From NCBI RefSeq assembly GCF_002245655.1, contig NZ_NOIH01000003.1:1-64000 (forward strand): a stretch of 64,000 nt of DNA, read 5' to 3'. Positions 21,972 to 60,376 of the stretch are shown one piece after another. The position numbers and the translations under genes are program-made. Source of the DNA: Thauera propionica. Its GTDB lineage: Bacteria > Pseudomonadota > Gammaproteobacteria > Burkholderiales > Rhodocyclaceae. Within the stretch, counting starts at the first letter, position 1, and each line of letters begins with the position of its first letter. The notes beneath the pieces are model-generated. The model made no database searches and had not been told where the DNA came from. It saw only the letters and a program-made list of their open reading frames with translations.

Positions 21972-22366
21972 AAAAAAGAAGTGGGGAAGTTCGCCGATAA
22001 GCCGGGTTCTGTCGAACATCGCCGGCAAGCCGGCGACATCGGGCAGTCATTCCTCTGGGCGCCCCGTTACCGTGGCGCTCTAGCAGCCTACCCGGGAGCG
22101 ACGCGAGCCACGCCAATGCTCCCCTATTTGGCCTTGCCCCGGATGGGGTTTGCCGTGCCAGTCCTGTTGCCAGTCCTGCGGTGAGCTCTTACCTCACCGT
22201 TTCACCCTTGCCTGATCCCGTTTGCACGGGCCATCGGCGGTCTGCTCTCTGTTGCACTTTCCGTCGCCTCACGGCGCCCGGCCGTTAGCCGGCATCCTGC
22301 TCTGCGGGGCCCGGACTTTCCTCCACGCACGACGAAGTGCGCAGCGACTGCCTGGCGAACTTCCCG
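21972..22366 (-). ncRNA. rnpB: RNase P RNA, bacterial class A
   Basis: This is the catalytic RNA that trims tRNA 5' leaders. On the minus strand the 5' end GGGAAGTTCGCC (22365-22354) pairs perfectly with GGCGAACTTCCC near the 3' end (21995-21984), forming P1. Conserved core segments are visible: GAGGAAAGTCCGGGC just after the 5' stem, and ACAGAACCCGGCTTAT before the 3' stem. A perfect -10, TATAAT, lies at 22373-22378, about 7 bases upstream of the 5' end; no good -35 is seen. After P1 the minus strand reads CACTTCTTTTTT, so P1 plus the T run probably serves as terminator. The mature RNA is about 384 nt. Confidence 0.93.
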
Positions 22367-45489: not shown

Positions 45490-46365
45490 CTAGAGCCAAT
45501 ACACGACGACGAACAGGATCAGCCACACCACATCCACGAAGTGCCAGTACCAGGCCGCGGCCTCGAAGCCGAAGTGGTGGTCCGGGGTGAAGTGGCCCGC
45601 CATCACACGGAACAGCATCACCGCCAGCATGATCGCGCCGATGGTGACGTGCAGGCCGTGGAAGCCGGTCAGCAGGAAGAAGGTGGAGCCGTAGATGCCG
45701 CTGTCGAGCCGCAGGTTGAGGTCGGCGTAAGCGTGCACGTACTCGTAGGCCTGCAGCGCGATGAAGATGGCACCCAGCACGATGGTGGCCAGCAGGCCGA
45801 GCTTGAGCTGGCTGCGCTTGTTGCCCAGCAGGCCGTAGTGCGCCCAGGTCAGCGTGACGCCGGAGGTCAGCAGGATCAGCGTGTTGATTGCGGGAATGCC
45901 CCACGCCCCCATCGGCGTGAAGGGGTCGGCGCCGCTCTGCGCGTAGGGGCCGGACGTAGGCCAGGTGCTGGTGAATCCCTGCCACAGCAGGGCCTCGTTG
46001 TCGCCGGACGCCAGCCACGGCACCGACAGCACGCGAGCGTAGAACAGTGCGCCGAAGAAGGCGGCGAAGAACATCACCTCGGAGAAGATGAACCAGCCCA
46101 TCGACCAGCGGAAGGACACGTCCACCCGCCTGCCGTACTGGCCGGTCTCCGATTCGCGCACGACCTGGCCGAACCAGCCGAACAGCATGTAGATCAGGAT
46201 GGCGATGCCGGCGAAGAACAACCACGGCCCCGCGGGCGCATCGTTGAGCCACAGCGCCGAACCGGCACCGAACAGCAGAAGCGCGATCGAGCCGAAGATC
46301 GGGTACTTGGACGGCTCGGGCACGAAGTAGTGGTCGAACGAGCGGCTTGCTGTTGCATGACTCAT
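45490..46365 (-). CDS. ctaE: cytochrome c oxidase subunit III
   Basis: Subunit III stabilises the aa3 oxidase and its proton uptake path. The 291-residue protein has seven membrane helices and begins MSHATASRSFDHYFVPEPSKYPIFGS. It has EVMFFAAFFGALFYAR with the conserved Glu, GFHGLHVTIGAIMLAVM, and the C-terminal AAWYWHFVDVVWLILFVVVYW. GGGGGA precedes the ATG. Confidence 0.97.
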   Translation of the reverse strand: MSHATASRSFDHYFVPEPSKYPIFGSIALLLFGAGSALWLNDAPAGPWLFFAGIAILIYMLFGWFGQVVRESETGQYGRRVDVSFRWSMGWFIFSEVMFFAAFFGALFYARVLSVPWLASGDNEALLWQGFTSTWPTSGPYAQSGADPFTPMGAWGIPAINTLILLTSGVTLTWAHYGLLGNKRSQLKLGLLATIVLGAIFIALQAYEYVHAYADLNLRLDSGIYGSTFFLLTGFHGLHVTIGAIMLAVMLFRVMAGHFTPDHHFGFEAAAWYWHFVDVVWLILFVVVYWL

Positions 46366-46401
46366 GACGTGTTCCCCCTGGCCTGTACTTGCCCGGTGCC
46401 G

Positions 46402-46614
46402 CTAGGCGAGCACCACTTGCACCGCGATGACGATGAGGATGACGAAGACCGCGCCGGCCAGCACGCCGGCCACGACCACCGCCAGCGGGTTGAGCGAGCC
46501 GGCGTCTTCCATGTAAGCCTGGCGCCTGCGCACCCCGAAGAATGACCACAGCACGGCGCGCAGCGTCGGCCAGAAGCCGGCGCGGCGCGGGTTGCCGGCA
46601 CCGTGCGCGTTCAT
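46402..46614 (-). CDS. DUF2970 small membrane protein
   Basis: The 70-residue protein has the DUF2970 core (WPTLRAVLWSFFGVRRRQAYMEDAGSLNPLAVVVAGVLAGAVFVILIVIAVQVVL): a cytoplasmic basic segment and one C-terminal membrane helix. It is regularly found between ctaG and ctaE in betaproteobacterial oxidase operons; function unknown. Its ATG overlaps the ctaG stop. Confidence 0.9.
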   Translation of the reverse strand: MNAHGAGNPRRAGFWPTLRAVLWSFFGVRRRQAYMEDAGSLNPLAVVVAGVLAGAVFVILIVIAVQVVLA

Positions 46615-47213
46615 GACGCCCCCTCCACCAGCGCTGGCTTCGGTGGTTGCGCCGCGGCGGTGTTGCGGCCCGGCAACTCGAAGAAGGTGTAGGAGAGCGT
46701 GATCACCGTGACGTCTGCCGGCAGCGCTGGATCGACGACGAACACCACCGGCATCGTGCGCTGCTCGCCTGGCGCCAGCGTCTGCTGCTCGAAGCAGAAG
46801 CAGTCCATCTTGTTGAAGTAGCGCCCGGCAAGTTGCGGCCCGTAGCTCGGCACCGCCTGGCCGGTCACCGGCACGTCGCGGGTGTTGGAGACTTCGTACT
46901 CGACCTGCACCAGTTGCCCCGGATGGACCTCGATCGAGCGCTGCATGGGCTGGAAGCGCCAGGGCAGGTGGTGCAGGTTGGCATCGAACTGCACCAGGAC
47001 TCGGCGACTGGTATCGACCTGGGTGTTGAGCACCGCCCTTGCCCCCTGCTCGGCCTCGGGCCGCAGGAAGTTGTTGATGCCGGTCACTTCACAGATCTTT
47101 TCGTAGAAGGGCACGAGCAGGAAGCCGAAGCCGAACATGACCGCGGCCGACACTGACAGGCGCAACAGCAGGCGACGGTTCTCCGCGGCGAGGCGGCCAG
47201 GGTGGGTACTCAT
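46611..47213 (-). CDS. ctaG: copper chaperone CtaG (Cox11)
   Basis: CtaG inserts copper into the CuB site of subunit I. The 200-residue bitopic protein has an N-terminal membrane helix (LSVSAAVMFGFGFLLVPFYEKICEVTG) and a periplasmic Ig-like domain. The copper motif is CFCF in FNKMDCFCFEQQTL, followed by the conserved MPVVFVVDP. It overlaps the 38-residue gene upstream and the DUF2970 gene downstream by four bases each. Confidence 0.96.
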   Translation of the reverse strand: MSTHPGRLAAENRRLLLRLSVSAAVMFGFGFLLVPFYEKICEVTGINNFLRPEAEQGARAVLNTQVDTSRRVLVQFDANLHHLPWRFQPMQRSIEVHPGQLVQVEYEVSNTRDVPVTGQAVPSYGPQLAGRYFNKMDCFCFEQQTLAPGEQRTMPVVFVVDPALPADVTVITLSYTFFELPGRNTAAAQPPKPALVEGAS

Positions 47214-47326
47214 TGCCCGAACACCTTGTACTTGAGGATGACGAAGACGAAGAAGGCGAACGCCACCGCCGCCAGCATCAGGCCGGTGCGACGGTTGGCT
47301 GCCTTGCGATCCTCGCTGCGCGTCAT
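47210..47326 (-). CDS. 38-residue oxidase-associated membrane protein
   Basis: The product is MTRSEDRKAANRRTG followed by one helix (LMLAAVAFAFFVFVILKYKVFG). Tiny genes of this form are annotated as cytochrome oxidase small assembly protein in related bacteria. The ATG is preceded by AAGGGTGAGG, and the stop overlaps the ctaG ATG. A longer frame starts 69 bases upstream but adds non-conserved residues. It is easy to miss because of its size. Confidence 0.8.
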   Translation of the reverse strand: MTRSEDRKAANRRTGLMLAAVAFAFFVFVILKYKVFGQ

Positions 47327-47437
47327 GTCCTCACCCTTCCTTGCCACCCTGGTGGCGAGGCGGAGAGCAGAGCCTCCTTCTCCCGAGATCTCCACCCCTG
47401 CTCCCCGCTCACCCCTGAAACCCTGCAGCGCCGGTTC

Positions 47438-49015
47438 CTACTTAACCACTGGTGCCTGCTCGAAGGTGTGGTGCGGCGCTGGCGACGGCACCGTCCACTC
47501 CAGCCCCTCGGCGCCTTCCCACGAACGCGCCGCGGCACGCTCGCCGCCACGCACGCACTTGACCACCACCACCAGGAAGATCAGCTGCGACAGGCCGAAG
47601 CCGAAGGCACCGACCGAGGCCAGTGCGTTGAAGTCGGCGAACTGCAGCGCGTAGTCCGGAATGCGGCGCGGCATGCCGGCCAGGCCGAGGAAGTGCATCG
47701 GGAAGAAGGTGATGTTGAAGAACACGATCGAGCACCAGAAATGCAGCTTGCCGAGGAATTCGCTCGGCATGTGCCCGGTCCATTTCGGCAGCCAGTAGTA
47801 GGCGCCGGCGAACAGCGCGAACAGCGAGCCGGCGACCAGCACGTAGTGGAAGTGCGCGACCACGTAGTAGGTGTCCTGCACCTGGATGTCGATCGGCGCG
47901 ATGGCGCAGATCAGGCCGGTGAAGCCGCCCATCGTGAACACGAAGATGAAGCCGGTGGCCCACAGCATCGGCGTCTCGAAGGTCATCGAGCCGCGCCACA
48001 TCGTCGCCACCCAGTTGAACACCTTCACCCCGGTGGGCACGGCGATCAGCATGGTCGCGTACATGAAGAACAGCTGGCCGGCGGCCGGCATGCCGGTGGC
48101 GAACATATGGTGCGCCCACACGGCGAAGGACAGGATGGCGATCGAGGCCGTCGCATAGACCATCGACGCATAGCCGAACAGCGGCTTGCGCGCGAAGGTC
48201 GGGATGATCTGGCTGACGATGCCGAAGGCCGGGAGGATCATGATGTAGACCTCCGGGTGGCCGAAGAACCAGAAAATGTGCTGGTACATCACCGGATCGC
48301 CACCGCCCGCAGCGTTGAAGAAGCTGGTGCCGAAATGGCGGTCGGTGAGGATCATCGTCACCGCGCCAGCCAGCACCGGCATGACCGCGATCAGCAGGTA
48401 GGCGGTGATCAGCCAGGTCCAGCAGAACAGGGGCATCTTCATCAGGGTCATGCCCGGCGCGCGCATGTTGAGCACGGTGACGACGATGTTGATCGCGCCC
48501 ATGATCGAGCTGATGCCCATGATGTGGATGGCGAAGATGGCGAGGTCCATGCCCATGCCCATCTGTACCGACAGCGGCGCGTACAGCGTCCATCCTGCGG
48601 CGGTGGCGCCACCCGGCACGAAGAAGGAGCCGATCAGCAGGATCGCGGCCGGTGGCAGCAGCCAGAAGCTCCAGTTGTTCATGCGCGCGAAGGCCATGTC
48701 ACTGGCGCCGATCATCAGAGGGATCATCCAGTTCGCGAAGCCGACGAAGGCCGGCATGATGGCGCCGAACACCATCACCAGGCCGTGCATGGTCGTGAGC
48801 TGGTTGAAGAATTCCGGCTGCACCACCTGCAGGCCGGGCTGGAACAGCTCTGCGCGGATCGTCAGCGCCATCACGCCCCCGGACAGGAACATGATGAAGC
48901 TGAAGATCATGTACATCGTGCCGATGTCTTTGTGGTTGGTCGTCGTGAGCCAGCGCATCAGGCCGGTCGGGCCGGGCTGATGCCCCTGGAGCTGATCATG
49001 TGTGACGGCGGCCAT
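47438..49015 (-). CDS. ctaD: cytochrome c oxidase subunit I
   Basis: The catalytic subunit of the aa3 oxidase binds heme a, heme a3 and CuB. The 525-residue protein has 12 membrane helices. The heme a ligand is in TMHGLVMVF, the CuB His-Tyr pair in FWFFGHPEVYIMILPAFG, the two CuB His in the VWAHHMF region, and the heme a3 and heme a His pair in YYVVAHFHYVL. AGGAGG precedes the ATG. It follows ctaC after 98 bases. Confidence 0.98.
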   Translation of the reverse strand: MAAVTHDQLQGHQPGPTGLMRWLTTTNHKDIGTMYMIFSFIMFLSGGVMALTIRAELFQPGLQVVQPEFFNQLTTMHGLVMVFGAIMPAFVGFANWMIPLMIGASDMAFARMNNWSFWLLPPAAILLIGSFFVPGGATAAGWTLYAPLSVQMGMGMDLAIFAIHIMGISSIMGAINIVVTVLNMRAPGMTLMKMPLFCWTWLITAYLLIAVMPVLAGAVTMILTDRHFGTSFFNAAGGGDPVMYQHIFWFFGHPEVYIMILPAFGIVSQIIPTFARKPLFGYASMVYATASIAILSFAVWAHHMFATGMPAAGQLFFMYATMLIAVPTGVKVFNWVATMWRGSMTFETPMLWATGFIFVFTMGGFTGLICAIAPIDIQVQDTYYVVAHFHYVLVAGSLFALFAGAYYWLPKWTGHMPSEFLGKLHFWCSIVFFNITFFPMHFLGLAGMPRRIPDYALQFADFNALASVGAFGFGLSQLIFLVVVVKCVRGGERAAARSWEGAEGLEWTVPSPAPHHTFEQAPVVK

Positions 49016-49113
49016 GCGGGGTCCTCCTGTCGAACAGCGCTACAACGACGACTCAACAACGCGATGCACAAACGCGGTGACCCTGATGCCGCCGCGGAGA
49101 TGCAATTCCGTTC

Positions 49114-49929
49114 CTATTGGGCGGCCAGCGCCACGTTCTGCGCCTGCATCTGGGCACTGACCCACTCGGCGTACTTCTCGGCCGACACGACGTGCACTTC
49201 GATCGGCATGAAGCCATGGTCGCGGCCGCACAGCTCGGCGCAGTTGCCCCGGTAGATGCCTTCCTTGTCGGCGCGGAACCAGGTGTCGCGGATGAAGCCG
49301 GGAATGGCGTCCTGCTTGACGCCGAAGGCCGGCACCCACCATGAATGGATGACGTCGTTGGCCGTCAGCAGCACGCGCACCTTCTTGCCCACCGGCACCA
49401 CCAGCGGCTTGTCGACCTCGAGCAGGTATGCCTCGCCCTTGGGGGCGCCGCCTTCGATCTGCTCGCGCGGCGTCGACAGGCTGGACAGGAAGCGGATGCC
49501 CTCGCCCTCGCCCTGCAGGTAGTCGTAGCCCCACTTCCACTGATAGCCGGTGGCCTTGATCGTCAGGTCGGGGTTGGAGGTGTCCTTCATCTCGATCACG
49601 GTTCTGGTCGCAGGCCAGGCCATGCCGAGCAGGATCAGGATGGGGATGACGGTCCAGGCGATCTCGACCGCGGTGTTCTCATGGAAATGGGCGGCGACGG
49701 CGCCCTTGGACTTGCGATGATGGAACACCGCCCAGAACATCACACCGAACACGCCGATGAAGATGACCAGACAGATCACCAGCATCAGCGTGTGCATGTC
49801 GTTGATCTGCTCGGCGATGCCCGTGACCGGGGCCTGCAGGTTGTAGCGCGCCGGCGAATCCTGCGCGAGCGCAGGACCGGCAAGGCCGACAGCGGCGGAT
49901 GCAGTCGCGAAGCGACGGGCACTTTCCAT
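49114..49929 (-). CDS. ctaC: cytochrome c oxidase subunit II
   Basis: Subunit II accepts electrons from cytochrome c at the CuA centre. The 271-residue protein has a short signal peptide (cleavage near ALA-Q at 22-23) and two membrane helices (about 46-68 and 88-105). A periplasmic cupredoxin domain holds the CuA ligands His195, Cys230, Glu232, Cys234, His238 and Met241 (CAELCGRDHGFM). There is no fused cytochrome c domain. The ATG at 49929 follows GGGGG; a GTG two codons upstream is too close to it. It is the first gene of the oxidase operon, with an FNR-type box 80 bases upstream. Confidence 0.97.
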   Translation of the reverse strand: MESARRFATASAAVGLAGPALAQDSPARYNLQAPVTGIAEQINDMHTLMLVICLVIFIGVFGVMFWAVFHHRKSKGAVAAHFHENTAVEIAWTVIPILILLGMAWPATRTVIEMKDTSNPDLTIKATGYQWKWGYDYLQGEGEGIRFLSSLSTPREQIEGGAPKGEAYLLEVDKPLVVPVGKKVRVLLTANDVIHSWWVPAFGVKQDAIPGFIRDTWFRADKEGIYRGNCAELCGRDHGFMPIEVHVVSAEKYAEWVSAQMQAQNVALAAQ

Positions 49930-50008
49930 GACCACCCCCTACATCTTGTAGTTTTGGCAGGCGTGACCGATGTTGCCATAGCGAAAAACACAGCCGCAAC
50001 ACGGTTTT

Positions 50009-50180: not shown

Positions 50181-50627
50181 TCAGCCGGTGGCGGACAGCT
50201 TGCGCCGCAGGGCCCGCATCAATGCGCCGATGACCGGCAAGTGGGCATAGAGCTCCTCGGCCGGATCCCAGTAGTCGCGATGCAGGACGACACGCCCGTC
50301 GGCATCGAAGCTCAGGTGGCTGACGCCACGGACCACCAAGGCACGCCCACGCAGGCGCAGGTGAAAGTCCCAGCCCAACATGGCTTGGTCGCCCTGCACG
50401 ATGCGACTGGTGACCACGAAGCGCGGTGAGTCCGCGGTCGCGAACATGTGTTCGAAGATGCGGCGGATCGCGGCGACGCCGATCACCTCGTTGAAGGGGT
50501 CCTTGAAATGCGCGTCGGGGGCGTAGAACTCGCCGAGGCGGACGAGCGAAGCCGGTGTCAGGGCCTGGTAGAAGTCGGCAAGCGCGTCGACGGCATCATT
50601 GACGGAGCGCTGGTTCGGGTTGGTCAT
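50181..50627 (-). CDS. SnoaL/NTF2-like small protein
   Basis: The 148-residue protein of the NTF2/SnoaL fold reads VDALADFYQALTPASLVRLGEFYAPDAHFKDPFNEVIGVAAIRRIFEHMFATADSPRF, then VRGVSHLSFDADGRVVLHRDYWDPAEELYAHLPVIGALMRALRRKL. Such proteins act as small enzymes or ligand-binding proteins. The polar pocket residues suggest an enzyme, but no reaction can be assigned. It is the last gene of the nine-gene operon and follows the SDR gene by eight bases. Confidence 0.85.
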   Translation of the reverse strand: MTNPNQRSVNDAVDALADFYQALTPASLVRLGEFYAPDAHFKDPFNEVIGVAAIRRIFEHMFATADSPRFVVTSRIVQGDQAMLGWDFHLRLRGRALVVRGVSHLSFDADGRVVLHRDYWDPAEELYAHLPVIGALMRALRRKLSATG

Positions 50628-50635
50628 TCGCGTAT

Positions 50636-51424
50636 TCAAAGTCCGGTTGCGCGCCGGATCAAGGCAAAGTAAGCGCGCCGCGGCAGCCACTGCAGCAGCT
50701 TCAGTACGCGCGTGAAGCGGCGCGGAAAGTGGATCTCGAAATCGCCCCGCCCGAAGCCGGCGACGATCTCCTGTGCCGCGTCCTCGGCGGAGATCAGCGC
50801 CGGCATACGGAAGTCGTTCTGCGCCGTAAGCGGCGTGGCGACGAAGCCGGGATCGATCAGGAACACGCCCAGCCCCTTCGGCGCCAGGTCCAGGTAAAGC
50901 GTTTCGGCGAAGTTGATCAGCGCGGCCTTGCTCGGCCCATACACCGTCGCCTTCGGCAACCCGCCGTAGCCGGCGACGCTGCCCACCAGCGCGATCGCGC
51001 CGCTGCCCTGCCCCAGCAGTTGCGGAATCACCGCCGCCGCGCCCGCCATGGTGCCGAACAGGTTGGTGTCGAGCGTCTCGCGGATCGCCTCGGGCTGCAG
51101 TTCCCAGGCGCGCAGCGGCCGGTAGGTGCCGGCGTTGAGCACCACCAGGTCGATGCCGCCCCAGGCATCGACCAGCCCGTCGCGCACGCGCTCGAAATCC
51201 TCGGGCCGGGTGACGTCCATCGGCTCGACGACCATGGCGGGGCCACAGTTCGCCGCGAGGGCCTCGAGCCGCTCGCGGCTGCGTGCCGATACCGCGACAC
51301 GCGCACCGCGCGCCGCCAGGGCCTGCACCAGCGCGGCGCCGATGCCGGTCGATGCCCCGACCAGCCACACCCGCCGCCCCTGCCAGTCGCGGATCGGCGC
51401 GTTGAGCGGCGCCAGCCAGCCCAT
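50636..51424 (-). CDS. short-chain dehydrogenase/reductase
   Basis: The 262-residue SDR has the NAD(P) loop VGASTGIGAALVQAL, the NAG motif in VLNAGTYRPL, the active-site Ser in VGSVAGYGG and the catalytic YGPSK (Tyr-x3-Lys), so it should be active. The C-terminus is basic and hydrophobic (RRFTRVLKLLQWLPRRAYFALIRRATG), suggesting membrane contact and a lipid-like substrate. The ATG overlaps the DUF3833 stop by one base. Confidence 0.92.
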   Translation of the reverse strand: MGWLAPLNAPIRDWQGRRVWLVGASTGIGAALVQALAARGARVAVSARSRERLEALAANCGPAMVVEPMDVTRPEDFERVRDGLVDAWGGIDLVVLNAGTYRPLRAWELQPEAIRETLDTNLFGTMAGAAAVIPQLLGQGSGAIALVGSVAGYGGLPKATVYGPSKAALINFAETLYLDLAPKGLGVFLIDPGFVATPLTAQNDFRMPALISAEDAAQEIVAGFGRGDFEIHFPRRFTRVLKLLQWLPRRAYFALIRRATGL

Positions 51425-51954
51425 CAGCCGCCCCGCTTGTAGAAGGACAGCGTTACCTCACCGAGGCGGAAGCCCCATTTGCTCATCACCGAACGGTTCA
51501 GCATCACGCGGTCGTCCATCAGGAACATCCAGTCGTCGAAGTCGACGTTGTAGACCTTGCCATCGACCGGCAAGGCCAGCACATAGCGCCAGCGCAGCGC
51601 GTTGCCGGCCTCCTCGCCGCGCGCCTCGCCGACCACGTCATCCGCGCGGCCGACGTAACGCCCCTCGCCGGTGCGGGTGATCGTCCACACTCGGCGCTGC
51701 GTGCTGCCGTCCGAATAGGTGAAGCGCTCGTCCAGCGTACCGACTTCGCCCTGCCAACTCGCGTCGATGATCACGGTGAAACGCTTGACCACCTCGCCGG
51801 AACGGTCCTGGAAGATGCCGTGCGCCTCGAGCGTGCCGTTGAAATACTGGCGCAGGTCCAGCACCGGCGTCTCGCTGCGGTATTTGTCGATCTCCACCGA
51901 ACTGCACCCCCACAGCCCGAACAGGGCCACCATCAAGACAAGGATTCGCTTCAC
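51424..51954 (-). CDS. DUF3833 lipoprotein
   Basis: The 176-residue product has a lipoprotein signal (lipobox GLWGC, Cys17) and a DUF3833 domain (LRQYFNGTLEAHGIFQDRSGEVVKRFTVIIDASW...MDDRVMLNRSVMSKWGFRLGEVTLSFYK). The fold is probably a lipocalin-like barrel; the function is unknown. The start is GTG at 51954 overlapping the MFS stop (GTGA), with GGAG ten bases upstream. DUF3833 genes recur beside DUF1365 and cyclopropane-synthase-like genes, as here. Confidence 0.9.
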   Translation of the reverse strand: MKRILVLMVALFGLWGCSSVEIDKYRSETPVLDLRQYFNGTLEAHGIFQDRSGEVVKRFTVIIDASWQGEVGTLDERFTYSDGSTQRRVWTITRTGEGRYVGRADDVVGEARGEEAGNALRWRYVLALPVDGKVYNVDFDDWMFLMDDRVMLNRSVMSKWGFRLGEVTLSFYKRGG

Positions 51955-53273
51955 GTTTCACAGGCTCCGCAGGGCGTCCGTGCGGCCGCAGGCAGCTGCG
52001 TGGCGGACGCGGTTTCGAGGACGTGGCGCCAGCGCCACAGCAAGGCGACGGCCAGCAACTTCAATCCGACCGGCACCACCGCGTACACCACCGACAAGGC
52101 CGCCAGCGCATCGAGCGCCGTCGCGCCGGGCGCGTAGCCGAGGGCAGCGAGTAGCGGCAGCGCCAGGCCCGCGGCGAGCGCGAGGTTGGCCTTGGTCACG
52201 AAGTTCCACCAGCCGAAGCAGGCGCCCGCGTGCGAGCCCCCGCCACCTTGCGTATCGTCCCGCGCCAGCAGGTCGGCAAGCAGCGACGGCGGCAGGCTCA
52301 GGTCGGCGCCGAGCGCCACGCCGGACAGCACGCAGATCGCGCCATAGGCGAGCAGATCACCCTGCCCGATGGTCGCCGCCCAGCCGAACACCACCACCGC
52401 CAGCCCCATGCCGGCCAGCCACGCGCGCAACTTGCCGACCCGCTGCGAGATGCGGACCCACAGCGGCAGGCTGGCCGCTGCGGCGGCGAAATACAGCATC
52501 AGGAAGGCGCCGGCGAAGGCGGTGGCGCCAAGCACGTCGGCAACGAAGAACAGCACCGTCGCCGACGGGATGGCTGCGGCGATGCCGTTGACCGCGAACA
52601 CCGCCAGCAGCCGGCTGAAGCCGGGGACGCGCAAGGCCGCCCCGAGCCCGGCGAGCACCGGGCGCCGGGCGGGTGCCGCGCTTGCCGGCAGTGGCGCCCG
52701 CCACAGGGTCCACAGGCCGAAGACCAGCAGCAGCGGGATGAAGACCAGGGCCAGCCGCGCCAGCCCGCCCACCTCGCCACCCTCGGCGGCCAGCAGCGCC
52801 GGCAGGGCGGCAGCCAGCATCACCCCGAAAAGCGCGAAACCCTCGCGACTGGCGACGAAGCGCGTGCGCAGCGCGGAGGTCGGCGCCACCTCCGCGCCCC
52901 AGGCATTGTGAGCGATGCTCGCCACCGAGTAGCCGAGCGAGACCAGCACCAGCAGCACGAACAACCACAGGGCGCCCGCACCATCCGGCGGCGCAAGCAG
53001 GCCGATCATGCCGAAGCCCAGCAGCGGCAGCGCGGCGGCCACCCAGGCACGGCGGCCGGGCCGGCGGTCGAGCGCCCAGCCGATCAGGGGATCGGTCAGG
53101 GCATCGACGATGCGCGCGGCCAGCAGGACGGCGCCGACGGTCGCCAGCGGCAGGCCAAGCTCGGCGTAAAGGCGCGGCACATGCACGTACAGCGGCAAGG
53201 CCGCAAAGGCGAGTGGCAGCCCGAGCGCGCCGTAGGCGAGCAGGTCCCGCCGCCGAACGCCGTCCGCGTTCAT
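51951..53273 (-). CDS. MFS transporter of the GPH/MelB type
   Basis: The 440-residue carrier has 12 predicted membrane helices. LLAARIVDALTDPLIGWALDRR is the melibiose-carrier (GPH) signature, and IAHNAWGAEV, RTRFVASREGFALFG and ADLSLPPSLLADLLARDD are typical. The substrate is unknown; a lipid or lipid precursor is an inference from the operon. The final 20 residues are cysteine-containing and probably cytoplasmic. It overlaps the genes on both sides by four bases. Confidence 0.9.
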   Translation of the reverse strand: MNADGVRRRDLLAYGALGLPLAFAALPLYVHVPRLYAELGLPLATVGAVLLAARIVDALTDPLIGWALDRRPGRRAWVAAALPLLGFGMIGLLAPPDGAGALWLFVLLVLVSLGYSVASIAHNAWGAEVAPTSALRTRFVASREGFALFGVMLAAALPALLAAEGGEVGGLARLALVFIPLLLVFGLWTLWRAPLPASAAPARRPVLAGLGAALRVPGFSRLLAVFAVNGIAAAIPSATVLFFVADVLGATAFAGAFLMLYFAAAAASLPLWVRISQRVGKLRAWLAGMGLAVVVFGWAATIGQGDLLAYGAICVLSGVALGADLSLPPSLLADLLARDDTQGGGGSHAGACFGWWNFVTKANLALAAGLALPLLAALGYAPGATALDALAALSVVYAVVPVGLKLLAVALLWRWRHVLETASATQLPAAARTPCGACET

Positions 53274-53836
53274 TGCGCGCGTCCGTCGAGCCCGAGCAGG
53301 CGCGCACGCAGTTCGGGCTCGCGCGTGCGCGCATCGAGCCAGATGGCGAAGAAGGCGCGCGCGAGAGCGGGGTCGTCGATCTCGGCCGTCAGCCGCCCCT
53401 CGTGCCAGAAGCGGGCGCCTTCGCCGGGCTGATGTAGTCCGACCAGCGTGTCGCCCGCCCGCACGGATGGCAGCGCGCGCGCGAGTTCGTCGCGCCAGCG
53501 CTGCAGCGTCGCCTCGTCGCGCTCACCCAGGCGGCGGATCTCGTCGATGCTGGTGTCCACCAGCCGGCGGCCGTCGATGTCACGCGCGTAACGGATCGCC
53601 AGAGCGTGCGTGTCGTCGCCAGGGGCCTCCGCCCCGCCGGCCACCAGCAGCCGCACGTCGTAGAGCTTGAAGCCCAGCCAACGCATCTCGCCTTCGCCGA
53701 GCACGCGCAGCGGCGCGGGCGCAAATTCCTCGGCGGCAGGCAGCACGTAGGCGTGCAGCGGCATTACCAGCAACGCCAGGGCAAGCCCCGCCGCCACGCA
53801 GGCGCCAAACCGCGCGCGACGCCGTGTCGCGTTCAT
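53270..53836 (-). CDS. chalcone-isomerase-like exported protein
   Basis: The 188-residue product has a signal peptide (GACVAAGLALALLVMPLHA) and a chalcone-isomerase-like domain (LRVLGEGEMRWLGFKLYDVRLLVAG, LAIRYARDIDGRRLVDTSIDEIRRLG, FWHEGRLTAEIDDPALARAFFAIWLDARTREPELRARLLG). Bacterial members of this family lack a known flavonoid role; some relatives of the fold bind fatty acids, which fits this operon. It is overlap-coupled to the CFA-like gene and the MFS gene. Confidence 0.87.
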   Translation of the reverse strand: MNATRRRARFGACVAAGLALALLVMPLHAYVLPAAEEFAPAPLRVLGEGEMRWLGFKLYDVRLLVAGGAEAPGDDTHALAIRYARDIDGRRLVDTSIDEIRRLGERDEATLQRWRDELARALPSVRAGDTLVGLHQPGEGARFWHEGRLTAEIDDPALARAFFAIWLDARTREPELRARLLGLDGRAQ

Positions 53837-55065
53837 CCCGCTTCTCCGACGTGGGCAAAGACGTAGTGATGAACGTCGATGTCACCGGTTTCGAAGCCCG
53901 CCTCGCAGTAAGCCAGGTAGAAGCGCCACATTCGGCGGAAGCGTTCATCGAAGCCCTGCGCCTTGATCACCGGCCACTGCGTCTCGAAACTGCAATGCCA
54001 GTGTGCCAGCGTGCGCGCGTAATCTCGGCCAAAGGTGAAATCGCCGACCACGGCGAGTCCGGCGCCCTGTGCTTGCCGGCCGACCTCCGCCGGACTGGGC
54101 AGCATCCCGCCGGGGAAAATGTAGCGCTGGATGAAGTCGGTGCCGCGCCGGTAGCGCTTGAACAGCGCATCGGCGATCGTGATCGCCTGCACCACACAGC
54201 GCCCGCCCGGTTTGAGCAAGGCCGAGAGCTGGGCGAAGTAGGTCGGCCAGAAGCGCTCGCCGACGGCCTCGATCATCTCGATCGACACGACGTGGTCGTA
54301 CTGGCCGCGCACGTCGCGATAGTCGCACAGGGCGAAGTCCACGCGGTCGGCAAACCCGCCGCGCTCGGCGCGCGCCTGGGCGAAGGCAAGCTGCGACGGC
54401 GACAGGGTGATGCCGAGCACGCGGCAGCCGAACTCGGTGGCCGCCACCTCGGCGAAGCCGCCCCAGCCGCAGCCGACCTCGAGGATGGTCTGCCCCGGCT
54501 GCGCGCCGAGTTCGCCCAGGATGCGGCGGTACTTGCGCAACTGGGCGTCATGAAGTGACTCGGCGGGCGTGTCGAACACCGCAGCGGAGTAGGTCATCGA
54601 CGGGTCGAGCCACAGCGCATAGAAATCGTTGCCGAGATCGTAATGGGCCTCGATGTTGCGGCGCGAGCCCGCACGGGTGTTTGCCCGCAACAGGTGGGCG
54701 ACGCGGTGGCCCAGCATGCGGAACATGCGGCCGTAGATCGCCTCGCCGATGCGGGCGCGGTTGCGCGACAGCAGGGTCAGCAGGCCGGTCAGGTCGTCCG
54801 TGTCCCACAGCCCGTCCATCCAGCTTTCGCCGAAGCCGATGTCGCCGCGCGCGAGGGTCTCATCGAACACCGCGTGGTCGCGCACGCGCAGGTGGGCGAC
54901 CAGCGGCCCGTGGCCCGCACGCAGGTGCGTGCCGTCGGGCAGCTCGATGGCAATCGCGCCGCCGTCGAGGCGATCGAAAATCTCCAGCGCCAGCCGGGTG
55001 GCGCGGGGCAGGCGCGACAGCTTGATGCTGGCGAGCGGCTGCAGGGCATGTTCCAGGGCGTTCAT
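53833..55065 (-). CDS. cyclopropane-fatty-acid-synthase-like SAM methyltransferase
   Basis: The 410-residue enzyme of the Cfa family acts on double bonds of membrane phospholipid acyl chains. The SAM site is LEVGCGWGGFAEVAA (about 195-209). Compared with E. coli Cfa, Glu266 and Tyr349 match bicarbonate-site residues Glu239 and Tyr317, but Cys139 is Ala161 (MTYSAAVF) and His266 is Gln293 (VVQAITI). Loss of two bicarbonate ligands suggests that methyl transfer may not end in a cyclopropane ring. The ATG overlaps the DUF1365 stop by four bases. It is flanked by DUF1365 and an FAD enzyme. Confidence 0.93.
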   Translation of the reverse strand: MNALEHALQPLASIKLSRLPRATRLALEIFDRLDGGAIAIELPDGTHLRAGHGPLVAHLRVRDHAVFDETLARGDIGFGESWMDGLWDTDDLTGLLTLLSRNRARIGEAIYGRMFRMLGHRVAHLLRANTRAGSRRNIEAHYDLGNDFYALWLDPSMTYSAAVFDTPAESLHDAQLRKYRRILGELGAQPGQTILEVGCGWGGFAEVAATEFGCRVLGITLSPSQLAFAQARAERGGFADRVDFALCDYRDVRGQYDHVVSIEMIEAVGERFWPTYFAQLSALLKPGGRCVVQAITIADALFKRYRRGTDFIQRYIFPGGMLPSPAEVGRQAQGAGLAVVGDFTFGRDYARTLAHWHCSFETQWPVIKAQGFDERFRRMWRFYLAYCEAGFETGDIDVHHYVFAHVGEAG

Positions 55066-55883
55066 CGCGAAGTCTCCTCGAGCGGCGGCAGCGGCTTCGG
55101 GTGGAAGCGCACGCGCCGGACGGCCAGGCGCAGGGCCTGCCAATGGATGCGGGCGATCACGCCCAGAGTCATGAAGGGCTGGCGCAACAGCCAGCGTCGC
55201 ATCGCGCGACCGTCGAGCGCCTCGGCGCGGCCACCGAGGCGGGTCGAGAGCTGCAGCACGCCGCCATCCCACAGGTCGACCGTGACCGCGTGCAGGCCGG
55301 GCCGGCGCTCGAAGCGGAAGCGGTATTCGCCGCGCACCGGGAAGAAGGGCGAGACGTGGAAGATCTTGCTCGCGCGCAGTTCGTCGCCGGATTCGATCGG
55401 GCGCAGGTCGGGGTGATGCACAAGATAATTGTGGTGCTCGCCGAAGGTGTTGCTGACCTCGGCCAGTACCACGCGCAAGCGGCCGGAAGCGTCGTGACAG
55501 AACCAGAAGCTGACCGGGTTGAACACGTAGCCCAGCACGCGCGGCATGGTCTGCAGCACCACCTCGCCGTCGCAGATGTCCCGCAGTCCGTGCGCGTCGA
55601 GAATGCGCTGCAGCCAGGGCAACAGGGGCGAACCGTCGCGCGCACCGTGGTCCCGGCGGCGGAAGCTGAAGGCGCCGGCGCGTTCGATGCCAAGCAGCGG
55701 CACATGCAATGCGTCGATCTGCGACAGGGGCAGACGCAGGAAGGCGGTGGGATAGACGAAACGGTTGTGCGCGACGACATGGCGCTCGTGCATCACCGCG
55801 CCGAAGCACACCGCGGGCTCCAGATCACCGACAGCGGCCGCAGCCGCTTCTCCGCGATCCAGCGCGACCGAATCGCTCACCAT
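55062..55883 (-). CDS. DUF1365 protein
   Basis: The 273-residue DUF1365 protein has CFGAVMHERHVVAHNRFVYPTAFLRLPL, the core RVLGYVFNPVSFWFCHDASGRLRVVLAEVSNTFGEHHNYLV, and FHVSPFFPVRGEYRFRF. Many conserved His and aromatic residues suggest an enzyme, but no reaction is established to my knowledge. It is almost always next to an FAD amine-oxidase-like gene and a Cfa-like gene. Its ATG lies inside the end of the FAD gene (7-base overlap). Confidence 0.93.
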   Translation of the reverse strand: MVSDSVALDRGEAAAAAVGDLEPAVCFGAVMHERHVVAHNRFVYPTAFLRLPLSQIDALHVPLLGIERAGAFSFRRRDHGARDGSPLLPWLQRILDAHGLRDICDGEVVLQTMPRVLGYVFNPVSFWFCHDASGRLRVVLAEVSNTFGEHHNYLVHHPDLRPIESGDELRASKIFHVSPFFPVRGEYRFRFERRPGLHAVTVDLWDGGVLQLSTRLGGRAEALDGRAMRRWLLRQPFMTLGVIARIHWQALRLAVRRVRFHPKPLPPLEETSR

Positions 55884-57244
55884 GCCCTGCCGGCCTCGAC
55901 CGCCCCGGCGACGGCGTCACGCCAGGGCACTGCCACACCCATCGACTCCACGACCGCGATCGCCGAACGCAGGCCGTCCTCGTGGAAGCCATAGCCCGTC
56001 CAGGCGCCTGCGAACCAGCTGTGGTTGCGGCCCTGGATGCGGTTCAGGCGATTCTGGGCGTCGATGGCGCCGCGGTCGAACACCGGATGCGCGTAGGTGA
56101 TGCGCTTGATCAGGCGCTCGGGCGCCGGCTCGCGGAAGGGGTTGAGCGAGACGACGACCGGCGTCTCGAACGGCAGCGGCTGCAGGCGATTGATCAGGTA
56201 GCTTACCGACACCGGGCGCGCATCGGGCGCGCCCTTCCCGGCCAGGTAGTTCCACGCCGACCACACCTTGCGGCGCGCGGGCAACAGGCTGGCGTCGGTA
56301 TGCAGCAGCGCGACGTTGTCCTGGTAGCGCACGGCGCCAAGGATGCGCCGCTCCTCCGCGCTCGCCTGCGGCCCGAGGATGGCCAGGGCCTGGTCGCTGT
56401 GGCAGGCGAACACGATGCGGTCGAAGCGCTCCGTGCCCTGCGACGAGCTGACCCACACCCCGGTTTCGTCGCGCGAGATCGCCGTGACCGGGCTGTTCAG
56501 CCGCAAGTCCTCGATCTTCTGCAACATCCTGCGCACGTAGCTGCGCCCACCGTTCTTTACCGTTAGCCATTGCGGGCGGTCAAGGATCTGCAGCAGGCCA
56601 TGGTTGTGGCAGAAGCGCACGAAAGTCGCCAGCGGGTAGTCCAGCATCGTGCGCGTCGGGCAGGACCAGATCGCGGCCGCCATCGGCAGCAGGTACCAGT
56701 CGCGGAAGGCGTCGCTGTAATCCTCGAGCACAAGGAAGTCGCCCAGCGACAGGTTGGGCAGGCCGCCCTCGCGCGCGAGCTGCGTGGTGTCGCGATTGAA
56801 GCGCAGGATGTCACGCAGCATCGTTAGAAAAGCCGGCCGCACGAGGTTGCGCGGCTGGGCAAACACGCTCGCCAGATCCGTTCCGGCCCACTCGATGCCT
56901 GGCTCGGCCAGGCTCACGCCGAAGCTCATCTCGGTCTCGACTGCCTCCACGCCCAGCTTCGCGAACAGCGCGCACAGGTTGGGATAGGTGCGGCGGTTGA
57001 AGACGAGGAAGCCGGTGTCGACGGGATGCGTCACGCCGCCCAGCGTCACGTCCACGGTGTGGGTGTGCCCGCCGGCCTCGGCGCCGGCCTCGAACACCGT
57101 GACCTGAGCATGGTCGGCCAGCAACCAGGCGGCAGACAGGCCTGCGATGCCACTGCCGATGACCGCGACCCGCTCGCCGGGACGCAGGGCGTCGTCAGCA
57201 CGGTCGCCGAAACCGGACCGGAAGAGATGCTCGGGCGCGTTCAT
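55877..57244 (-). CDS. FAD-dependent amine-oxidase-like desaturase/oxidoreductase
   Basis: The 455-residue flavoprotein has the FAD loop VAVIGSGIAGLSAAWLL near residue 27 and the second nucleotide motif FEAGAEAGGHTHTVDV. Conserved internal segments are GFLVFNRRTYPNLCALFAKLGV and VFACHSDQALAILG; the end reads WFAGAWTGYGFHEDGLRSAI. This resembles carotenoid desaturases and the flavoproteins paired with Cfa-like enzymes. I infer oxidation of a methylated acyl chain. The ATG at 57244 shares one base with the upstream TAA. Upstream frame extensions are not conserved. Confidence 0.9.
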   Translation of the reverse strand: MNAPEHLFRSGFGDRADDALRPGERVAVIGSGIAGLSAAWLLADHAQVTVFEAGAEAGGHTHTVDVTLGGVTHPVDTGFLVFNRRTYPNLCALFAKLGVEAVETEMSFGVSLAEPGIEWAGTDLASVFAQPRNLVRPAFLTMLRDILRFNRDTTQLAREGGLPNLSLGDFLVLEDYSDAFRDWYLLPMAAAIWSCPTRTMLDYPLATFVRFCHNHGLLQILDRPQWLTVKNGGRSYVRRMLQKIEDLRLNSPVTAISRDETGVWVSSSQGTERFDRIVFACHSDQALAILGPQASAEERRILGAVRYQDNVALLHTDASLLPARRKVWSAWNYLAGKGAPDARPVSVSYLINRLQPLPFETPVVVSLNPFREPAPERLIKRITYAHPVFDRGAIDAQNRLNRIQGRNHSWFAGAWTGYGFHEDGLRSAIAVVESMGVAVPWRDAVAGAVEAGRAW

Positions 57245-57489
57245 TATCGACGCTCCCGTTCGGGTGCTGCCGAGGTCGCCGCCGGAACGCGCAAGGGCGC
57301 AATGTCGGCGCGATGGGCGAACAGCATGAGATCGATGAGCGCCGGGTCCTTGGGCGCCGGGCTTTCGGCGCGCTGCACCGGGTTGCGCGTCGCCTCCGGC
57401 TGGACGGCGGCCGCGTGGCCCGCGCCGAGGACCGCCACGATACCGAGGACGAGAGCAGGCACGCTGGAGAGGTTCGCTGCGTATTTCAT
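57244..57489 (-). CDS. small exported protein, first gene of the lipid operon
   Basis: The 81-residue product has a signal peptide (MKYAANLSSVPALVLGIVAVLGAGHAAA) and a short mature part rich in Ala, Pro and Arg with FAHRADIAPLRV. There is no recognisable domain. The ribosome-binding site AGGA lies inside operator 2, and the ATG follows that operator directly. The stop overlaps the next start (TAATG). Coding is supported by the signal peptide and tight coupling, not by homology. Confidence 0.65.
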   Translation of the reverse strand: MKYAANLSSVPALVLGIVAVLGAGHAAAVQPEATRNPVQRAESPAPKDPALIDLMLFAHRADIAPLRVPAATSAAPERERR

Positions 57490-57490
57490 G

Positions 57491-57507
57491 ATTTGTCCTG
57501 GACAAAT
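57491..57507. promoter_or_regulatory. operator 2 of the lipid operon
   Basis: ATTTGTCCTGGACAAAT is a perfect palindrome with 8-base arms and one central base. It lies just after the predicted transcription start and overlaps the ribosome-binding site of the first gene. The same core, TTGTCC-N-GGACAA, recurs at 57556 and, with one mismatch, at 60362. Confidence 0.85.
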
Positions 57508-57522
57508 GTCGATTGCAATTGA

Positions 57523-57551
57523 ACAGTAGGTCACAGCGACCACCATGTCAA
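57523..57551 (-). promoter_or_regulatory. promoter of the nine-gene lipid operon
   Basis: On the minus strand a perfect TTGACA (57546-57551) is followed after 17 bp by TACTGT (57523-57528). Operator 1 lies just upstream and operator 2 just downstream; their centres are 63 bp apart, close to six helical turns. Confidence 0.7.
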
Positions 57552-59351: not shown

Positions 59352-60278
59352 TCAGTCCGCGTTTTCGCGGGCGCTGCGCCATTCGCGCAAGGCGGCAAGA
59401 GTGTCGTCCAGATCGCCGACCACGCGCACCCCGGGCAGACGGCGCTGACGGTCGCGCACCGCGGCGCCACCCGCCCACAGGGCGATACGCGGCGGCAGGC
59501 TGGCGCGCAGTTCCAGCAGGTCGTCGATCGCCTGGCGCGACGGGTAGGCGATGCTGAACGACAGGCCGACGATGTCGAAGTCGCCGCCGGCCGCTGCATT
59601 GCGGATATCGGCCAGCGGCGTGCGCGTGCCGAGCGACACGCAGGACGCGCCCTCGGGCACGAGCATGGCTTCTGCCATCAGCAGGCCCAGCACATGCACC
59701 TCGTCGGGCAGCGTGGTGAGCAGGATGCGCGGCCGCCCGCCGGTACCGGCCTGCGCACCGATGGCGCTGCGCAGCAGGTTCTGCACCTGCTCGGAAAACA
59801 GATGTTCCTCGGACACCTCCAGTTCGCCGCGCAACCAGGCTTCGCCCACCGCCGTAGCCAGCGGCGCCACGGTCTCGGCGACGAAACGCTGAAGCCCCTG
59901 CTTGAGCAGAGCCTGGCGCAAGCCGGCCGCCAGTTCCGCGCTGCGGTGCAGGCAGACGCATTCGAGCAGGCGAGTGTCGCAGCCGCCCTCCTCCCCGGCG
60001 CCGGCGGCACGCCCATGCTGTGCGAGCAACTGCATCAGTTCTTCGGATGACGCGCCGCAGATCTTCGCCGGCCGGTGACCGTGATCCAGCAGGCGACGGA
60101 TCAGGCGCAACTTCTCGACCTGCTCCGGCGGGTACTGGCGCTCGCCATGGGCATCGCGCGCGGGCGCCGGGAAGCCGTAGCGGCGCTCCCACACCCGCAG
60201 GGTGTCCTTGGGCAAGCCGGTATCGCGCTCGACGGCGGCGATGTTGAATGCGATCTCTTCCGGAGGCGCGGCGTTCAT
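59352..60278 (-). CDS. B12-binding MerR-family regulator of the CarH/LitR photoreceptor type
   Basis: The 308-residue product has three domains. The MerR helix-turn-helix is at about 10-75 ([27 protein letters not shown]). A helical B12-cap domain holds W148-x9-E158-H159 ([13 protein letters not shown]), the motif that packs on the upper face of adenosyl-B12 in CarH. The Rossmann B12-binding domain has E193-V-H195-x2-G198 (lower axial His) and GG at 270-271; the usual S-x-L is S-F-S here. CarH/LitR proteins repress in the dark and release DNA when light breaks the Co-C bond. That this one does so is inferred from the motifs. The neighbouring lipid operon and the regulator's own promoter share a palindrome, suggesting control of both. 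Confidence 0.9.
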
Positions 60279-60339: not shown

Positions 60340-60376
60340 ATGCTAGGCAGCGACATCGGTTTTGTCCACGACAAAA
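60340..60376 (-). promoter_or_regulatory. regulator promoter with operator 3
   Basis: On the minus strand TGGACA (60363-60368) and TAGCAT (60340-60345) are 17 bp apart. The -35 lies inside the palindrome TTTTGTC-CAC-GACAAAA (60360-60376). Its 13-bp core at 60362-60374 is the operator TTGTCC-N-GGACAA with one mismatch. Binding would repress the regulator gene itself. A lone half-site GGACAA lies at 60313-60318. Confidence 0.7.

What the first reader, a model, noticed from the sequence alone, without database searches (positions are those of the whole stretch)
59352..60278. CarH/LitR-type B12 photoreceptor motif in a MerR regulator
Seen: a MerR helix-turn-helix, E-x-H-x2-G with His195, a GG pair, and W148-x9-E158-H159. 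Known: W-x9-EH marks adenosyl-B12 photoreceptors such as CarH, whereas MerR/B12 proteins lacking it are light-independent. Inference: this protein senses light, and expression of its targets should rise on illumination. One deviation is S-F-S in place of S-x-L in the B12 loop.
Basis: partly seen in the sequence, partly recalled or inferred. Interest (0 to 1): 0.75.

Follow-up and report, generated by a model that had tools for sequence, protein, structure and literature searches.

The report
B12 light-sensing repressor of photoprotection genes
A bacterium carries a gene switch that very probably uses vitamin B12 as a light detector to turn on DNA-repair and membrane-protection genes, and it belongs to a branch of such switches that lacks one amino acid important in the best-studied relative.

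Summary
The 308-aa protein at 59352-60278 (-) has a MerR domain, both B12 domains, W148-x9-E158-H159, E193-x-H195-x2-G198, S240 and GG270-271. Its nearest solved relative is TtCarH (E 3e-29). In its 98-row branch of the tree Trp, His159 and the axial His are kept in 97 of 98. 'SFS' is a branch trait, not a defect. New evidence points to light: a palindrome TTTGTCCWRGACAAA, often paired 63 or 74 bp apart around a promoter whose -35 box keeps an 11-bp register, lies upstream of litR in 73 of 85 relatives and tracks litR (78 of 80 genomes against 13 of 119). In this genome the five perfect intergenic copies precede litR, a furan-fatty-acid-type operon (two), a photolyase, and a flavoprotein/photolyase-family/DUF3429 promoter region. 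Best reading: a class I LitR/CarH-type AdoCbl photorepressor of photoprotection, not carotenoid, genes. Cofactor, oligomer, DNA binding and light response are untested.

The parts
59352..60278 (-). litR/carH-type gene, 308 aa: MerR DNA-binding domain (residues 12-73), four-helix bundle (103-169), B12 Rossmann domain (184-297)
   Evidence: AlphaFold2 model, mean pLDDT 92.9
59835..59837 (-). Trp148, adenosyl cap of Wx9EH
   Evidence: W in 97 of 98 rows of the branch
59832..59834 (-). Leu149 at the place of TtCarH His132 (upper cobalt ligand after light)
   Evidence: His in 1 of 98 rows, L178
59802..59807 (-). Glu158-His159 of Wx9EH
   Evidence: 98 and 97 of 98 rows
59694..59696 (-). His195, predicted lower axial cobalt ligand (TtCarH His177)
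   Evidence: 97 of 98 rows
59553..59561 (-). S240-F-S242 of the B12 loop, a signature of the branch
60362..60374 (.). operator candidate TTGTCCACGACAA between litR and recQ; on the minus strand it starts 96 bp before the litR ATG
   Evidence: same distance in the 92% relative L055
57556..57568 (.). operator candidate O1 (TTGTCCTGGACAA on +), upstream of the -35 box
57546..57551 (-). -35 box TTGACA, starting 17 bases after the start of O1, so its ACA is 11 bp from that of O1
   Evidence: same offset in 42 of 50 promoter pairs of relatives
57523..57528 (-). -10 box candidate TACTGT, 17-bp spacer
   Evidence: read directly from the sequence
57493..57505 (.). operator candidate O2 (TTGTCCTGGACAA on +), 63 bp from O1, between the predicted transcription start and the first ATG
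57244..57489 (-). small ORF, 81 aa, first gene of the predicted regulated operon, signal-peptide-like start (read by eye)
   Evidence: 68% identical copy in L055, weak matches elsewhere; no Pfam family for the longer frame
55877..57244 (-). FAD oxidoreductase (Amino_oxidase), UfaD-like by domain and place
   Evidence: found within the fetched flank of litR in 67 of 80 family loci
55062..55883 (-). DUF1365 protein, UfaO-like
   Evidence: 8e-75; UfaO carries DUF1365 (passages of PMC7380195)
53833..55065 (-). cyclopropane-synthase-family methyltransferase, 410 aa, UfaM-like
53270..53836 (-). chalcone isomerase-like protein
51951..53273 (-). MFS_2 transporter
51424..51954 (-). DUF3833 protein
50636..51424 (-). 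short-chain dehydrogenase
50181..50639 (-). SnoaL-like protein, last gene of the cluster
   Evidence: same gene order in Azoarcus sp. KH32C

Best explanation
The protein is a class I LitR/CarH-type transcription repressor. Inferred mechanism: in the dark it binds adenosylcobalamin (His195 below, W148-E158-H159 capping the adenosyl group), forms an oligomer and occupies T-N2-ACA half-sites arranged as the palindrome TTTGTCCWRGACAAA; two such palindromes, mostly 63 or 74 bp apart, bracket the promoter of a furan-fatty-acid-type operon and block RNA polymerase. Light breaks the Co-C bond, the oligomer lets go, and the operon, a photolyase, a flavoprotein/photolyase-family unit, DUF3429 and litR itself are expressed. 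Because Leu149 cannot ligate cobalt, the light state should be water/hydroxide-ligated rather than bis-His. Shown here: motifs, fold, conservation and register of the palindrome, its co-occurrence with litR, and the genes behind it. Inferred: cofactor binding, oligomer state, light response, direction of regulation, and binding of this protein to these sites.
For: Sequence and fold: E 3e-29 to TtCarH; residues 94-305 of the model match TtCarH B12 domains at Z 20.7-21.7 (rmsd 2.1-2.8 over 190-198 residues in those rows) and photocobilins at Z 22.1-22.8; Foldseek puts full-length TtCarH first, 5e-18 to 1e-15. W, H159 and axial His in 97 of 98, E158 in 98 of 98; RxWERRY recognition helix present (R28-V-W30-E-R-R-Y34). 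Operator: perfect TTGTC-N3-GACAA upstream of 73 of 85 litR relatives, at most one mismatch in 79 of 85; 135 copies in 1.01 Mb against 0-5 for each of the other 19 orders of the half-site letters; 125 of 132 copies in 80 family loci fall in the 330-bp litR upstream windows. Link to litR: 78 of 80 genomes with litR have TTGTCCWRGACAA, 13 of 119 without (Fisher 1e-38, not corrected for kinship). Architecture: -35 TTGAC at offset 17 in 42 of 50 pairs of the 62-64 bp class and at offset 28 in 16 of 18 of the 73-76 bp class, i.e. one extra 11-bp unit, with a further T-N2-ACA in that unit in 9 of 18; published CarH operators are 11-bp direct repeats nnnnTnnACAn with the -35 inside one (passages). Targets in this genome. 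Adenosyltransferase (CobA/CobO/BtuR) and CobS families are present. One relative of the protein in the genome; the other four matches are weak, E 0.002-0.03.
Against: His132 of TtCarH is missing, and the Arg176-Asp201 salt bridge of the TtCarH dimer has no counterpart (Val194, Arg219), while the place of Gly160 is a gap; so assembly as in TtCarH is not assured. Full-length superposition on TtCarH is poor (rmsd 12-18), and AppA's SCHIC domain scores as high as TtCarH (Z 20.8), so fold alone does not show light sensing. The protein scores 128.5 bits against the 400-bit cut-off of NCBI's CarH equivalog model. In the window the central base of O1 on the operon strand is A, so O1 lacks the T of T-N2-ACA that 37 of 50 relatives have. 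The window's litR promoter has one perfect site, not a pair, and litR and the operon lie on one strand with a gene between, unlike 66 of 80 relatives. 5 of the 10 perfect sites of the genome lie inside long open frames, so the motif alone is not specific. The 28 T-N2-ACA at +11 (first class) and 13 at +22 (second) are the TTGACA boxes themselves, not independent sites, and the nine extra ones come mostly from one sub-branch.
Confidence: 0.75

Rival explanations
1. AdoCbl-dependent but light-insensitive repressor: it senses B12 supply (or B12 damage), and without the His132 ligand photolysis does not dissolve the oligomer.
For: Leu149 in place of His132; TtCarH H132A mostly stays tetrameric in light in PMC10442372 (passages). 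Another B12-type domain exists in the genome (a 1259-aa frame matches residues 175-272, E 0.002, not identified further).
Against: The genes behind the sites are photolyases and oxidative-stress-type genes; none of those identified is a B12 gene. CtMerR with Arg at the same place monomerises in light (passages); SasPcob, Gln there, forms a water/hydroxide-ligated light state. An earlier report that H132A does disassemble in light is cited in PMC10442372.
Confidence: 0.12
2. B12-independent LitR of class II kind, whose light signal comes from a short LOV protein.
For: An operon of the same kind (flavoprotein, UfaM, SDR) and a two-site promoter layout are described for class II LitR of Pseudomonas (PMC9758184).
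Against: Full B12 motif and axial His are kept, which class II lacks by its description. No LOV core motif, by a narrow pattern, in the 30 best of 57 PAS_9 matches of the genome (27 weaker matches not looked at, and a LOV gene missed by PAS_9 is possible). The Pseudomonas site TGTACA-N12-TGTACA occurs 0 times in 1.01 Mb of relatives' loci.
Confidence: 0.06
3. The palindrome belongs to another regulator, and litR is only one of its targets.
For: 13 of 119 genomes without a litR match hold the motif; litR itself is a target, so gene and site could be lost together.
Against: Site presence follows litR in 78 of 80 genomes; the 11-bp register with the -35 box is the published CarH signature; the genes behind the sites resemble a LitR regulon elsewhere. 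One of the 13, G056, has the site beside the flavoprotein at a contig end of an 85% complete genome, so its litR may simply be missing from the assembly.
Confidence: 0.1

Closest known systems
CarH/LitR of Thermus thermophilus (class I LitR; PDB 5C8D-F, 3WHP)
   Same: Domain order, Wx9EH, axial His, B12 motif spacing, RxWERRY helix, -35 box in 11-bp register with T-N2-ACA half-sites, photolyase gene nearby in Thermus
   Different: About 35% identity; Leu for His132; Val/Arg for the Arg176-Asp201 pair; palindromic double operator around the promoter; neighbouring operon is of the lipid type, not carotenoid genes
CtMerR of Chloracidobacterium thermophilum (PDB 8JBS/8JBT)
   Same: MerR + B12 domain without the His132 ligand (Arg there), tetramer in dark and monomer in light (passages of PMC11796333)
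   Different: 21-22% identity in the structural matches; Leu rather than Arg; targets of CtMerR not known to me
PplR/PmlR class II LitR of Pseudomonas
   Same: Controls an operon of the same kind (photolyase, flavoprotein, UfaM, SDR) from one site at the -35 box and one between start site and ATG
   Different: No B12 motif, driven by a short LOV protein, site TGTACA-N12-TGTACA
RSP1091-1087 (ufaD, ufaO) and ufaM of Rhodobacter sphaeroides, raised in chrR mutants
   Same: UfaD (phytoene-desaturase-like), UfaO (DUF1365) and the SAM methylase UfaM make furan fatty acids (passages of PMC7380195)
   Different: Control there is through ChrR (RpoE recalled); here under a B12-type repressor. Homology of the window's enzymes to UfaD, UfaO and UfaM was not tested by alignment

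Membership tests
CarH / class I LitR | MerR-type DNA-binding domain with RxWERRY helix | tested here: met
   MerR_1 8e-15; RVWERRY at 28-34
CarH / class I LitR | Wx9EH adenosyl cap | tested here: met
   W148, E158-H159; 97 of 98 rows of the branch keep all three
CarH / class I LitR | E/DxHx2G-x41-S ... GG with axial His | tested here: met
   E193, H195, G198, S240, G270-G271 at the published spacing
CarH / class I LitR | T or V two residues after that Ser (SxT/V) | tested here: not met
   Ser242; Ser in 95 of 98 rows, Thr in 3. One letter of the published consensus; I therefore say CarH-type variant, not plain CarH
CarH / class I LitR | NCBIfam equivalog NF052513 (CarH) above cut-off | tested here: not met
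   128.5 bits against 400
CarH / class I LitR | His after the Trp as light-state ligand (in many CarH; Arg, Gln or Tyr in other light-responsive proteins) | tested here: not met
   Leu149; His in 1 of 98 rows of the branch, L178, and in 4 of the 35 relatives
CarH / class I LitR | Operator of 11-bp steps of TnnACA with the -35 inside one | tested here: inconclusive
   register of the -35 box kept in relatives and in the window, but O1 of the window has A for T, and the arrangement adds palindromes; binding not tested
CarH / class I LitR | AdoCbl binding, dark oligomer, release of DNA by light | not testable with these tools
   needs protein
Class II LitR (Pseudomonas) | four-helix bundle kept, B12-binding motif lost; LOV partner | tested here: not met
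   motif complete; no LOV motif in the 30 best of 57 PAS_9 matches
Class III LitR (Burkholderia) | C-terminus without similarity to known functional domains (PMC9758184) | tested here: not met
   B12-binding and B12-binding_2 above cut-off
Furan fatty acid (ufaD-ufaO-ufaM) operon | flavoprotein, DUF1365 protein and SAM methylase of the cyclopropane-synthase family side by side | tested here: met
   activity and direct homology to the R. sphaeroides enzymes not tested

The most novel reading that the evidence does not exclude
A branch of AdoCbl photorepressors that works without the bis-His light state: mostly Met or Leu stands where TtCarH puts its second cobalt ligand, so the photoproduct stays labile (water-ligated) and could be exchanged for fresh AdoCbl, and the branch uses a two-palindrome operator in 11-bp register to switch furan-fatty-acid synthesis and DNA repair with visible light.
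Probability: 0.4. Interest if true: 0.65.

Novelty: new variant of a known kind. Interest (0 to 1): 0.5.

Why it matters
It would put one photoprotection module, furan-lipid synthesis plus photolyase, under a third kind of sensor (ChrR in Rhodobacter, LOV with class II LitR in Pseudomonas, and here B12), and it offers natural CarH-type proteins without His132 to settle the published disagreement on whether bis-His ligation is needed for release from DNA. It also suggests an operator and promoter for green-light control in beta-proteobacteria.

Tried and rejected
Carotenoid link: the genome has two SQS_PSY genes, side by side at C55:332495-334110; the one scanned is HpnD above NCBI's cut-off, so they look like hopanoid genes; the other was not scanned. 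No carotenoid gene was recognised at a site.

Cobalamin riboswitch: none at gathering threshold in the window; the one Rfam match is RNase P RNA. The rest of the genome was not scanned.

P. putida-type operator TGTACA-N12-TGTACA: 0 in 1.01 Mb of loci.

One-mismatch sites in the own genome: 89 on a strand against 81 for the reversed control, so only perfect sites were used there.

Reading the 63/74 bp spacing as helical phasing alone: the 74-bp class has an extra 11-bp unit between O1 and the -35 box, so a repeat-unit reading fits at least as well.

Genome-contig scan gave five loci, one of them weak; the genome search was used instead. Families not listed are not excluded by it.

Rows dropped: the counts used 95 rows, leaving out L133, L178 and L180, long rows that the tree puts at the base of the same 98-row branch; L178 has His after the Trp and L180 has lost the motif. 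Counts on all 98 are and are the ones quoted. One pair at 77 bp was in neither class. The upstream region of L129 is only 42 bases and that of L134 298.

Literature: 18 papers hold one of five strings and ten were listed, none with a 13-mer; a paper with TTGTCCTGGACAA or TTGTCCAGGACAA would hold two strings and rank first, but TTGTCCTAGACAA alone could hide among the eight not listed. No title on a LitR of this family among those listed (20 of 21; 20 of 2,537; 12 of 676; 12 of 20). Subscription papers on LitR classes II and III and the first CarH structures were not available; what I say of them is as cited in the papers above.

Full report
What was checked. Pfam gives MerR_1, B12-binding_2 and B12-binding above cut-off; phmmer against solved structures gives TtCarH/LitR (3WHP, 5C8D) at 3e-29 across residues 10-295, and CtMerR (8JBS) at 2e-7. 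The motif residues W148, E158, H159, E193, H195, G198, S240, G270 and G271 are as stated and at the published spacing (21, 48). An AlphaFold2 model from 56 sequences has mean pLDDT 92.9; its residues 94-305 match photocobilin, TtCarH and CtMerR B12 domains at Z 20-23. AppA's SCHIC domain (Z 20.8) ties with them, methionine synthase is lower (18.4), and the full-length superposition on TtCarH is loose (rmsd 12-18), so fold alone would not prove light sensing.

In TtCarH the His after the Trp of Wx9EH becomes the upper cobalt ligand after light. Here it is Leu149. In 85 relatives aligned first (81 from 80 family loci plus L021-L024) it is never His. In the 98-row branch that holds the protein it is Met 31, Leu 25, Glu 12, Ala 12, Val 5, Ile 4, Thr 4, Phe 2, Lys, Arg and His one each, the His being L178. 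In the 35 relatives, His follows the Trp in four (the Thermus protein L168, L178, L181, L182), and the Trp itself is missing in three (L180, L185, L188). The Arg176-Asp201 pair of the TtCarH dimer is Val194/Arg219 here and the Gly160 place is a gap, while Gly192 is kept as Gly210. The literature is split on His132: the H132A protein mostly stays tetrameric in light in PMC10442372, against an earlier report that it cites (passages); CtMerR, with Arg there, is a dark tetramer and light monomer, and its Glu of the EH pair turns toward the cobalt instead (passages of PMC11796333); the photocobilin SasPcob ends water/hydroxide-ligated (passages of PMC10979010). So the missing His changes the expected photoproduct, not necessarily the function.

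The palindrome. Upstream of the neighbouring operon I found two exact copies of TTGTCCAGGACAA 63 bp apart, bracketing TTGACA-N17-TACTGT on the minus strand, and a third, TTGTCCACGACAA, between litR and recQ. In the window, TTTGTC-N3-GACAAA with up to two mismatches occurs only at these three places (one of 100 shuffles also reaches three). Genome-wide there are ten perfect TTGTC-N3-GACAA places. Five are between genes, and all five sit before litR or photoprotection-type genes: two before the operon, one before litR, one 4 bp before the ATG of a 479-aa photolyase, one before a flavoprotein followed by a photolyase-family gene, with DUF3429 divergent. Five lie inside long open frames (one of them, L001, not clearly a gene) and are taken as chance.

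Conservation. Of 199 genomes of the family, 80 have a relative at E up to 1e-20; in a spread of 369 genomes of the class, 47 at E up to 1e-15, most of them distant. In 85 upstream regions, 73 hold a perfect site and 79 one with at most one mismatch. The other 19 orders of the half-site letters occur 0-5 times in the same 1.01 Mb, against 135. In the 80 family loci 125 of 132 perfect sites are in the 330-bp litR upstream windows. The pattern TTGTCCWRGACAA is present in 78 of 80 genomes with litR and 13 of 119 without (counted by hand from the two tables; Fisher 1e-38 ignores kinship). Misses among litR genomes are G021 and G065; among genomes without litR, G052 and G129 hold several sites and are unexplained.

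Architecture. Neighbouring sites (at most one mismatch) in 120 upstream regions are 62-64 bp apart in 50 cases and 74-75 bp in 18. Read on the operon strand, the -35 TTGAC starts 17 bases after O1 starts in 42 of 50 of the first class and 28 bases in 16 of 18 of the second. The second class is thus the first plus one 11-bp unit. T-N2-ACA stands 11 bp beyond that of O1 in 28 of 50, and in the second class at 11 bp in 9 and at 22 bp in 13 of 18; the 28 and the 13 are the TTGACA boxes themselves, the nine are additional but come mostly from one sub-branch; every other offset from 3 to 40 has at most 5 (first class) or 1 (second). Published CarH operators are tandem 11-bp repeats nnnnTnnACAn with the -35 box in one (passages of PMC9304148). 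This is the strongest link between the palindrome and a CarH-type DNA-binding domain. In the window the register of the -35 is kept but O1 has A instead of T at its centre. Two more distant relatives (L181, L183) have the same palindrome twice at 42 bp.

Genes behind the sites. Beside litR, 66 of 80 family loci have the flavoprotein on the opposite strand; 67 have it at all within the fetched flanks, 67 the DUF1365 gene and 62 the methyltransferase, with several loci cut by contig ends. In the window litR and the operon lie on the same strand with a Na/Pi symporter gene between them. Azoarcus sp. KH32C carries the whole series next to a LitR gene on a plasmid. Flavoprotein, DUF1365 and methyltransferase are the set of UfaD, UfaO and UfaM, which make furan fatty acids in R. 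sphaeroides (passages of PMC7380195); I infer the same here without an alignment. Of the 30 loci brought in, 19 hold litR, the flavoprotein, DUF3429 or the second flavoprotein by tblastn; of the other 11, three sites precede a glutathione peroxidase, one a lipocalin, one a fasciclin, one an unidentified frame, and five lie in coding frames (read by eye; one glutathione peroxidase confirmed). Of 20 further sites that I picked from the (truncated) list away from litR, 14 lie before recognisable genes: DUF3429 three, DUF2189 three, fasciclin two, a LytTR-PAS regulator with a membrane protein two, lipocalin/SDR, flavoprotein/SDR, photolyase-family and UfaD-like one each; six do not (classes drawn after the fact, Pfam for part of them). 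The genome has the cobalamin adenosyltransferase and CobS families and no second litR.

Relation to known classes. Takano and co-workers divide LitR into classes I-V; class II lacks the B12 motif and answers to a short LOV protein, class III has an unrelated C-terminus (PMC9758184: abstract, introduction, first results and discussion read; passages). This protein has the class I motif apart from Ser for Thr/Val, but falls far below NCBI's CarH equivalog cut-off. I therefore call it a class I LitR/CarH-type variant that probably works like CarH. In the tree it sits in a 98-row branch of proteobacterial proteins apart from the Thermus protein (quick search, many open forks, root by midpoint).

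Verdict. Light, cofactor and binding remain experiments. The novelty is moderate: a known kind of photoreceptor, in a branch nearly without the upper ligand of TtCarH, with an operator layout and a lipid/DNA-repair regulon that I did not find described in the searches made (within the limits told under Tried and rejected).

Noticed in passing
window 21982-22363 (-): Bacterial class A RNase P RNA, 315.7 bits; the only Rfam match at gathering threshold in the window.
   Followed up: no
window 57244-57489 (-): Small 81-aa ORF with a signal-peptide-like start just after O2; 68% identical copy in L055, weak matches in L058 and L065.
   Followed up: partly
L180 (genome G478): A relative that has lost the Trp, the His of EH and the axial His, i.e. 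a natural member without the B12 ligands; a one-mismatch palindrome overlaps its presumed start.
   Followed up: no
L095 (genome G188): Two litR copies about 4 kb apart, each with two palindromes upstream.
   Followed up: no
genomes G052 and G129: Several perfect palindromes but no litR match at the threshold used.
   Followed up: no
L237, L238: Palindrome between a LytTR-PAS regulator and an unnamed membrane protein, in two genomes; a possible second light-linked regulator.
   Followed up: partly
L181, L183: The same palindrome twice at 42 bp spacing in front of distant relatives of another sub-branch.
   Followed up: no
window 45490-49935 (-): Cytochrome c oxidase genes (read by eye from the frames) directly downstream of the light cluster.
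   Followed up: no
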